This document shows, one piece after another, positions 6,953 through 16,233 of a stretch of 64,000 bases of DNA. Position 1 is the first letter of the stretch; each line of letters begins with the position of its first letter. Position numbers and translations under genes: made by a program. The DNA is from Microcaldota archaeon (GTDB taxonomy: Archaea > Micrarchaeota > Micrarchaeia > Micrarchaeales > Micrarchaeaceae). The notes beneath the pieces were generated by a model. It was given only the letters and a program-made list of their open reading frames with translations, searched no databases and was not told the origin of the DNA. Location: NCBI GenBank assembly GCA_021818545.1, contig JAKATX010000002.1, forward strand, positions 1-64,000. The letters are read 5' to 3'.

Positions 6953-7618
6953 GTGGCAGATGCGAGATCGCACAAGAAAGAATTCATCAAGCGCGTTTTG
7001 GTGAGGCTAAAGGCGAGATACCGCACACAGATGCGCACGTCCTTGGACCATAGCGATCCATGGCAGCTTACGGTAGCTACAATCTTATCCGCCCAATCCC
7101 AGGATGTGCAGGTCAACAAAGTCACTGCCAGGTTATTCAAAGATTTTCCAACATCGGCATCGTTCTCACGAAGCCGCCCTAACAACTTATACCCTTACAT
7201 AAAAACCCTGGGGTTATATCGCAGCAAAGCCAAGAACATAATAAAAGCCGCCAAGGTGCTGGAAAGCAAGTTTGGGGGTAATGTTCCACACACCATAGAA
7301 GAACTCACGGAGATGCCGGGAGTCGGGCGTAAGACTGCAAATGTCGTGCTGTCAAACGCTTTCGGGATAAACGAAGGCATTGCGATAGATACGCATTGCA
7401 TAACGGTTTCCAATAGGCTGCATCTTGTCCACACGAAGGACGCAAAGAAAATAGAAAGTGCAGTAATGGGGATTACGCCTAAAAAAGACTGGAGCAACAT
7501 CTCACTCCTTTTCATAGCTCTTGGCAGGGATGTCTGCACTGCAAGGGCGAAATATTGCTCCAAGTGCATACTCAACGATATGTGCCCTTCCAGCGAAATA
7601 AAAGTGGTTAAACGATAG
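6953..7618 (+). CDS. nth: Endonuclease III (DNA glycosylase/AP lyase), copy 1
   Basis: Removes oxidised pyrimidines and nicks abasic sites. The 221-residue protein has the helix-hairpin-helix MPGVGRKTAN with catalytic Lys~127, the catalytic Asp~146 in AIDTHC, and a C-terminal C-x6-C-x2-C-x5-C 4Fe-4S loop (CTARAKYCSKCILNDMC). It starts with GTG 6953, just after archease. Its stop codon TAG (7616-7618) overlaps the predicted AUA start of dph6, giving ATAG. A second paralogue lies at 56.6-57.2 kb. Confidence 0.93.
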   Translation: MADARSHKKEFIKRVLVRLKARYRTQMRTSLDHSDPWQLTVATILSAQSQDVQVNKVTARLFKDFPTSASFSRSRPNNLYPYIKTLGLYRSKAKNIIKAAKVLESKFGGNVPHTIEELTEMPGVGRKTANVVLSNAFGINEGIAIDTHCITVSNRLHLVHTKDAKKIESAVMGITPKKDWSNISLLFIALGRDVCTARAKYCSKCILNDMCPSSEIKVVKR

Positions 7619-8280
7619 GCTGTCTTTTTAGCGGAGGTAAGGATTCTACATTGGCGCTATACAAAGCTGCGCAAGAAGGCAAACGCGCAGACGTCCTAAT
7701 AACGATGTTTGCGGAAAACGAATACAGCTACATGTTCCATAAACCTGCTGTAGAGTTCACGAGCCTGCAGGCGGAAGCCCTAGGAATAAAACAGATAATA
7801 GGGAAGACAATTGGGAAGAAGGAAGCCGAACTGCGCGACCTAGAAGACATAATAGTTCGAAGTGGGGTAAAAGAACTAATTACCGGAGCGGTTGCCAGCA
7901 AATACCAGAAGGACAGGATAGACGCAATATGCGAGAAGCACGGCATAAAGGCAATAGCGCCCCTATGGGGCATAGAGCCGCTGTCCGAACTTCGCGAGAT
8001 AGCCGCATCGTTTGATGCGATAGTAACACACGTTTCTGCGGAGGGTTTTGATCAAAGTTTCCTTGGTAAAAAGATAGATGATGAAATGATAGAAAGACTT
8101 ATTAAATTGTACAACAAGTATAAGGTCAACATGTCCTTCGAAGGAGGCGAGGCCGAGTCGTTCGTCCTGGATATGCCTTTATTCGCTAAAAAGATAAGGA
8201 TTCTGAAGGCGCATACACTTTGGGATGGACAGGTTGGCACGTACGTGATAGACAAGGCGGAACTTGAGGTCAAAGCATGA
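7615..8280 (+). CDS. dph6: Diphthine-ammonia ligase, predicted AUA start
   Basis: Catalyses the last step of diphthamide synthesis on elongation factor 2, an ATP-dependent amidation. The ORF track starts at TTG 7651, which would cut off the ATP PP-loop. The frame upstream is open to TAA 7609-7611 and reads GCLFSGGKDSTLALYKA, giving the family's SGGKDS signature at residues ~5-10. Further family blocks are TGAVASKYQKDR, the PLWG segment and SFEGGEAESFVLD. No ATG, GTG or TTG exists between the stop and 7651. The only sensible start is ATA 7615, which overlaps the nth TAG. The gene overlaps the next one by ATGA (8277-8280). A nth-dph6 frameshift product is the alternative. Confidence 0.85.
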   Translation: MGCLFSGGKDSTLALYKAAQEGKRADVLITMFAENEYSYMFHKPAVEFTSLQAEALGIKQIIGKTIGKKEAELRDLEDIIVRSGVKELITGAVASKYQKDRIDAICEKHGIKAIAPLWGIEPLSELREIAASFDAIVTHVSAEGFDQSFLGKKIDDEMIERLIKLYNKYKVNMSFEGGEAESFVLDMPLFAKKIRILKAHTLWDGQVGTYVIDKAELEVKA

Positions 8281-15656: not shown

Positions 15657-15687
15657 CCTTTAATTTCCAATCCATACTAGTGATAGC

Positions 15688-16233
15688 ATAACAAGATTCT
15701 ACACAGGACACGGGGATTCCGGATACACTGGCACAATAGCCAGAATCAAGGTAAAGAAAGACGACAAGCTTATGGAAGCCATCGGCAATATGGACGAGCT
15801 TAACTCTGCCATCGGGGTGGCCATAGCCGAGATGCCGGATGAGCATGTATCAGAAATGCTGAAAGTGCTGCAGAACAAGCTCTTCATAGCCGGTGCGGAG
15901 CTTGCTTCATCCGGTGGTGCAAGAAGCCAGAAGGGCAAGCGCATAAGCGCAGCCGATCTAAAAGAGCTGGAAGAGGGCATAGAAGAATTGGGCGCAGCCC
16001 TGCCTAAGCTCACAAAATTCGTTTTGCCAGGGGGCAGCGCCGGCGCAGCTCACCTGCATATGGCCAGGGCGATTGCGAGAAGGGCGGAACGCGCCGTCGT
16101 CGCGCTCGATGGCAGGCATGCTGCGAGCGATGAGATGCTAAGCTTCCTCAATCGGGCATCCTCATTCCTCTTCGTATCCGCGTTATACATAAACGTGAAA
16201 GAGGGCATAGACGAGTACAACCCCGTTTACTGA
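15688..16233 (+). CDS. Cob(I)alamin adenosyltransferase (PduO type), predicted AUA start
   Basis: Makes adenosylcobalamin from ATP and cob(I)alamin. The track's ATG 15772 would remove the conserved ATP-binding N-terminus. The upstream frame reads TRFYTGHGDSGYTGTIARI..., matching the family's YTxxGDxGxTxL segment, then MDELNSAIG. No ATG, GTG or TTG lies between the in-frame TAA at 15661 and 15772, so ATA 15688 is the likely start (~181 residues, normal). Later blocks FVLPGGS (~115), ARAIARRAER and FLNRASSFLFVSAL are all present. The 3' end overlaps the convergent scpB by 7 bases. Confidence 0.82.
   Translation: MTRFYTGHGDSGYTGTIARIKVKKDDKLMEAIGNMDELNSAIGVAIAEMPDEHVSEMLKVLQNKLFIAGAELASSGGARSQKGKRISAADLKELEEGIEELGAALPKLTKFVLPGGSAGAAHLHMARAIARRAERAVVALDGRHAASDEMLSFLNRASSFLFVSALYINVKEGIDEYNPVY

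What the first reader, a model, noticed from the sequence alone, without database searches (positions are those of the whole stretch)
7609..7660. dph6 appears to start at AUA inside the upstream stop codon (ATAG)
The frame of dph6 upstream of the first listed start (TTG 7651) encodes the ATP PP-loop GCLFSGGKDSTLALYKA that the family cannot lose. Between the in-frame TAA (7609-7611) and that TTG there is no ATG, GTG or TTG. The remaining candidate is ATA 7615, whose last two bases plus the next form the TAG stop of nth (ATAG). Changing ATA to ATG would turn that stop into TGG and remove the nth terminus, so the overlap would itself preserve the AUA. Natural AUA starts are very rare. A -1 frameshift from nth is the alternative.
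Basis: partly seen in the sequence, partly recalled or inferred. Interest (0 to 1): 0.7.

Follow-up and report, generated by a model that had tools for sequence, protein, structure and literature searches.

The report
Archaeal dph6 gene starting with ACG
In this uncultured archaeon one base change turned the normal start codon of a protein-making gene into ACG (not AUA), and the same change is found in a second genus, which suggests that these cells can begin proteins at codons thought to be almost unusable.

Summary
The sequence facts hold: dph6 has no ATG, GTG or TTG between the in-frame TAA (7609-7611) and TTG 7651, and a TTG 7651 start would lose the ATP P-loop. The reading "AUA 7615 start" is not the best one. 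In relatives the dph6 ATG aligns with ACG 7612-7614, not with ATA. The sister species reads TAA-ATG-ATA-GGC; this window reads TAA-ACG-ATA-GGC. A single T>C difference at 7613 changes both dph6 ATG to ACG and the nth stop TGA (usual ATGA overlap) to CGA, so nth runs one codon on to the TAG behind it. Two species of another genus have the same ACGATAG junction, a separate event on the tree, with dph6 under strong purifying selection (dN/dS 0.07), so it is not only a sequencing error. Of 92 dph6 genes classified, 87 have an NTG at the expected place; five have ACG (3), CTG (1) or ATA (1). A second window gene, a cobalamin adenosyltransferase, has ATA (15688) where the sister has ATG. Initiator tRNA and aIF1 of the clade look ordinary. 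Most likely: low-level initiation at ACG. Rivals: AUA 7615, a consensus error or strain variant, recent loss. No peptide or ribosome data were available.

The parts
6953..7618 (+). nth (endonuclease III-like, HhH-GPD); one codon longer than in relatives because its usual TGA is CGA (7613-7615); ends in TAG 7616-7618
   Evidence: (TIGR01083 207.4 bits, just under the cut-off 211.7)
7609..7611 (+). in-frame TAA upstream of dph6; rules out any start further upstream
7612..8280 (+). dph6 (diphthine--ammonia ligase), 222 codons from ACG plus TGA
7612..7614 (+). ACG: position of the ATG start in relatives; most likely start codon
7613..7613 (+). C where the sister species has T: one substitution that changes dph6 ATG>ACG and nth TGA>CGA
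   Evidence: L003/L032 against window
7615..7617 (+). ATA: second codon of dph6 in many relatives; rival start; its last two bases with G7618 make the nth stop TAG
7604..7609 (+). GTGGTT, modest Shine-Dalgarno-like stretch just upstream of ACG
   Evidence: -5.6 kcal/mol; random window 20-mers: median -2.9, best tenth -6.6
7630..7647 (+). P-loop SGGKDS, lost if translation began at TTG 7651
15688..16233 (+). PduO-type cobalamin adenosyltransferase (PF01923) with ATA at the start position; no NTG from the upstream stop to codon 37 of the open frame

Best explanation
dph6 began at an ATG at 7612 that overlapped the nth stop (ATGA). In this lineage a T>C change at 7613 made the start ACG and the nth stop CGA, nth then stopping at the TAG just behind it (shown by comparison). 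The gene is still needed and translated, most probably by the ordinary CAU initiator tRNA pairing imperfectly with ACG, helped by ribosomes that have just terminated on nth (the stop ends four bases beyond the ACG codon) and perhaps by a modest Shine-Dalgarno-like stretch (inferred). The result would be a correct Dph6 starting Met-Ile-Gly-Cys at reduced yield (inferred).
For: Ungapped alignment of ACG 7612 with ATG in the sister G002 (78% identical; TAA ATG ATA GGC TGC CTT TTC) and with the start codon of most relatives. 87 of 92 classified dph6 genes have an NTG 3-9 codons before the P-loop; the five exceptions are ACG in G000, G021 and G100, CTG in G079, ATA in G046. G021 and G100 (genus g18) carry GGTGGTCAAACGATAG, the same ACGATAG; G000 and g18 are separate on the nth+Dph6 tree, G000 being sister to ATG-bearing G002 (support 0.996, 56 genomes). 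Purifying selection: G021/G100 dS 0.46, dN/dS 0.074; G000/G002 dN/dS about 0.06 with dS near saturation; amino-acid changes unique to G000 against G002 are 19:13 in dph6 and 17:10 in nth, so no special acceleration. 38 of 59 nth-dph6 pairs overlap by four; three overlap by seven, and these are the ACG genomes (their identity follows). Other conserved genes without NTG starts in the same clade. Initiator-type tRNA with anticodon CAU found in the stretches of G000, G021 and G100; aIF1 in 12 of 13 genomes.
Against: One MAG, 60% complete, no reads: C7613 could be a consensus error or a minority strain. ACG is a very poor start in general (recalled; Hecht 2017 is not in the library). The Shine-Dalgarno-like pairing in the window is unexceptional. 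In g18 an in-frame ATG lies 17 codons before the P-loop inside nth, so those two species might start there; against that, all three differences between them in that stretch change the amino acid of the extended dph6 frame, while two of three are silent in nth (read by eye). No protein-level data.
Confidence: 0.6

Rival explanations
1. Initiation at AUA 7615, overlapping the nth stop as ATAG, by termination-reinitiation.
For: AUA touches the stop itself; AUA sits where other genes have their start: cobalamin adenosyltransferase in this window and dph6 of G046.
Against: Not the homologous start; loses one residue before the first strand; ATA is the usual second codon in relatives with ATG, so its presence needs no special cause; in G046 no nth was found upstream, so AUA there is not held by an overlap.
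Confidence: 0.13
2. C7613 is a consensus error or a strain variant; the true or major sequence is ATG with nth ending in TGA.
For: Single MAG; one base restores the usual arrangement; the sister has it.
Against: The same base change in the same context in two species of another genus; other NTG-less conserved genes in this genome but no convincing nonsense mutation in the conserved genes compared. A hand-assembled comparison of NTG-losing start changes against transition-to-stop sites gave 5 of 830 against 1 of about 3,600 (Fisher p 0.0012) and, without dph6, the weak G021 case and a decayed G002 gene, 3 of 830 against 0 (p 0.0066); it is approximate.
Confidence: 0.15
3. dph6 is freshly inactivated in this lineage.
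For: No NTG start.
Against: Intact 222-codon frame aligned over the whole family model, no acceleration relative to nth; g18 keeps the gene under selection with the same ACG.
Confidence: 0.07
4. dph6 is made as an Nth-Dph6 fusion by -1 frameshifting.
For: The frames are offset by -1 at the junction.
Against: Separate genes with their own start in relatives; no fused frame in the loci examined; no slippery site.
Confidence: 0.03
5. The ACG is edited to AUG in the RNA.
For: Known in chloroplasts (passage in PMC9845219).
Against: Would not explain the ATA cases; no such editing of archaeal mRNA is known to me (recalled).
Confidence: 0.02

Closest known systems
infC (ATT/ATC) and Streptomyces sigR (GTC), bacterial genes with non-canonical start codons (PMC5472188, passages read)
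   Same: Conserved gene, no NTG start, a mismatched start codon; a fidelity factor (IF3 there, aIF1 here) is expected to repress it
   Different: Those are in bacteria, are experimentally studied, and serve regulation; here archaeal, ACG, no experiment, and no sign of autoregulation
ATGA four-base overlaps with termination-reinitiation in Haloferax and E. coli (PMC10666635, passages read)
   Same: nth-dph6 in many relatives is a typical -4 overlap
   Different: Here the start is ACG and the overlap has grown to -7
ACG start codons of eukaryotes and viruses, and of chloroplasts after editing (PMC9845219, passages and reference titles)
   Same: Same codon at the start position
   Different: Other initiation machinery, or RNA editing
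aIF1 control of start-codon choice in archaea (PMC6237735, passages read)
   Same: aIF1 discriminates against non-canonical starts, so it would set the yield here
   Different: No natural ACG start gene in the passages read; 'ACG' does not occur in that text

Membership tests
Archaeal Dph6 (diphthine--ammonia ligase) | Score above curated cut-offs, P-loop SGGKDS | tested here: met
Genes with a non-canonical start codon | No NTG codon that could start a full-length product | tested here: met
   window; in g18 only partly, a distant upstream ATG exists
Genes with a non-canonical start codon | Same non-NTG codon kept in related species | tested here: inconclusive
   ACG shared by G021 and G100; G000's congeners G001, G002, G003 have ATG
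Genes with a non-canonical start codon | N-terminal peptide, ribosome profile or mutated reporter | not testable with these tools
   no such data held
Termination-reinitiation gene pairs | Overlap or gap within about -8 to +6 | tested here: met
   -7 with ACG as start
Programmed -1 frameshift fusion | Slippery site and fused homologues | tested here: not met
Altered initiator tRNA | Initiator with an anticodon other than CAU | tested here: inconclusive
   a CAU initiator-type tRNA found in G000, G021 and G100 stretches, but the genomes were not covered whole

The most novel reading that the evidence does not exclude
This micrarchaeal family uses ACG and AUA as working start codons in roughly one per cent of its conserved genes, with an ordinary CAU initiator tRNA and aIF1: a relaxed start-codon rule that standard gene finding would miss or truncate.
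Probability: 0.35. Interest if true: 0.75.

Novelty: new variant of a known kind. Interest (0 to 1): 0.58.

Why it matters
Natural ACG starts in archaea were not found in print in the searches made here. A conserved, clearly constrained gene with ACG, arisen twice at the same overlap, would show that archaeal initiation tolerates a mismatch in the middle base of the start codon, and would mean that gene finders cut or miss conserved proteins in these lineages. It is directly testable with reads, peptides or reporters.

Tried and rejected
AUA as the ancestral start: rejected by alignment. Slippage from nth: no site, no fused relatives. Initiator tRNA with a changed anticodon: the Met tRNA found has CAU, A1:U72 and three G:C pairs in the anticodon stem (hallmarks recalled; sequence). 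Loss of aIF1: present in 12 of 13 genomes, missing only in the 60%-complete G000. Pattern scan of the phylum for a codon whose middle base is not T before ATH-GS at the P-loop: 10 of 301 genomes, only G000, G021 and G100 with ACG; of the other seven, six have an upstream ATG and one (G185, L155) was not resolved. A first survey script was swamped by shadow frames and was replaced. Candidates dropped: G000 C13:3627-3947 (low-complexity, shadow-like), G000 C7:61473 (ATG at codon 33), G100 C18:8470 (shadow of an opposite-strand frame), G002 C1:92564 (decayed copy), G003 C21:5011 (weak), G002 C6:127 (ATC, or a TTG some 15 codons on; unresolved). Internal stops listed were dismissed only in part after inspection: G000 C1:30721 against G002, the short G002 C13:93 case and G021 C8:284793 against G000 were not fully resolved. 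The tally itself counted dph6 as 'shared NTG' through an internal Met and did not contain the G021 C7 gene; both were added by hand to the comparison. The G021 C7:47486 ACG case has a one-base indel beside the start relative to G100 and is weak.

Full report
What is there. The window is contig C7 of a 711-kb MAG, 60% complete, from the Micrarchaeota to judge by the titles of near relatives. nth (6953-7618) is followed by dph6, whose frame opens at 7612, directly after an in-frame TAA, and reads ACG ATA GGC TGT CTT TTT AGC GGA GGT AAG GAT TCT. The protein is archaeal Dph6 by TIGR03679 and PF01902 and aligns from its second residue with the solved relative 2d13. No ATG, GTG or TTG precedes TTG 7651, and that TTG lies behind the P-loop.

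Where the start was. In the sister species G002 (78% identical; its contig C1 has the length and dph6 position of JAJZOR010000003.1, a Micrarchaeota MAG) the junction is TAA ATG ATA GGC TGC CTT TTC, with nth ending in the TGA of ATGA. The window differs by T>C at 7613. This one base changes dph6 ATG to ACG and nth TGA to CGA; nth gains an Arg and stops at the next codon, TAG. So the start position is 7612, and ATA 7615 is the ordinary second codon.

How common. I classified dph6 in 72 family genomes (73 of 85 searched have a match; G026 lacks the P-loop part) and in the 20 genomes of a second family that had a match: 87 of 92 have an NTG 3-9 codons before the P-loop (77 ATG, 4 GTG, 6 TTG), five do not: G000, G021 and G100 with ACG, G079 with CTG, G046 with ATA. 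G000, G046 and G079 have no NTG at all in the open frame before the P-loop; G021 and G100 have an ATG 17 codons before it, inside nth. Their extended frame shows no sign of being kept: the three differences between them there all change the amino acid, two of the three being silent in nth (read).

Independent and functional. On a tree of Nth plus Dph6 for 56 genomes G000 groups with G002 (0.996) and then G003, while G021 and G100 group together elsewhere, so ACG arose at least twice by parsimony. Between G021 and G100 dS is 0.46 and dN/dS 0.074; between G000 and G002 dN/dS is about 0.06 with dS near saturation; G000 shows no extra acceleration in dph6 compared with nth. The gene has been under constraint.

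Why this site. Of 59 nth-dph6 pairs in the family, 38 overlap by four bases, and 23 of these read ATGATAG, with a TAG directly behind the TGA; the three 7-base overlaps are the ACG genomes. The tandem stop makes T>C almost harmless to nth. That explains why the change can happen; it does not explain how dph6 survives it.

Other genes. In this window the cobalamin adenosyltransferase (PF01923) has ATA at 15688 where the sister has ATG; all 29 other loci shown from its family search have an NTG at or near the start, out of 66 genomes with a match. An ABC ATPase on G000 contig C11 has ATA ACG near the beginning of its open frame and no NTG until codon 44, just before Walker A. In G002 an epimerase-like gene starts TAA ACG GAA ATA CTT, where G000 has ATG; the nine other loci with strong matches that I read have NTG. 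A HhH-GPD gene of G002 has ATA GTA ACG where G000 has ATG. G021 has one weaker ACG case. In a strict tally 136 genes of G000 and 158 of G002 were compared. Convincing nonsense mutations in conserved genes were absent in G000 and limited to one decayed gene in G002, although sites one transition from a stop outnumber start-codon sites several-fold; this speaks against simple error or decay, with the caveats given under tried and rejected. No control outside this clade was run, so I cannot say that the rate is special to it.

Mechanism. Shown: the change, its double effect, its recurrence, constraint on the gene, a CAU initiator-type tRNA and tRNA-Ile(UAU), aIF1 in 12 of 13 genomes. Inferred: initiation at ACG by the normal initiator, aided by ribosomes terminating on nth. 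The 16S tail in G002, G003, G021 and G100 contains ATCACCTC; pairing of the leader with a generic archaeal tail is strong in g18 (-12.8 kcal/mol) but unexceptional in the window (-5.6), so Shine-Dalgarno rescue is not established there.

Literature. Passages read: PMC6237735 (aIF1 opposes non-AUG starts), PMC10666635 (ATGA coupling; ATT about 0.3% of ATG, citing Hecht 2017), PMC5472188 (infC, sigR), PMC9845219 (chloroplast), PMC5622118, PMC8211752, PMC11445065. Searches for ACG or non-canonical starts in archaea and for Micrarchaeota start codons listed no report of this (titles and abstract beginnings seen).

Noticed in passing
window 15664-16233 (+): Cobalamin adenosyltransferase with ATA (15688) where sister species have ATG; no NTG until codon 37 of the open frame.
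   Followed up: yes
L180 7552-8253 (+) (G000 contig C11): ABC transporter ATPase whose open frame begins GGT GCT TGC ATA ACG GAT and has no NTG until codon 44, just before Walker A.
   Followed up: partly
L192 5951-6787 (-) (G002 contig C12): Epimerase-like gene in the sister species: in-frame TAA directly followed by ACG GAA ATA CTT, where the window's own genome has ATG.
   Followed up: yes
L051 692-694 (+) (G046): dph6 of a second family with ATA at the start position and no NTG in the open frame before the P-loop, without an adjacent nth.
   Followed up: partly
L127 (G079): dph6 with CTG at the start position in a CTGA overlap with the nth stop.
   Followed up: no
L342-L345, 16S rRNA 3' end: The 16S tail reads ATCACCTCGAA or ATCACCTCAAA, apparently lacking the final CCT of the usual CCTCCT anti-Shine-Dalgarno.
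   Followed up: no
L074 12564-12965 (-) (G002:C1:92564-92965): Decayed copy of a membrane-protein-like gene intact in G000 (C7:102456-103097): lacks a start and has an internal stop.
   Followed up: partly
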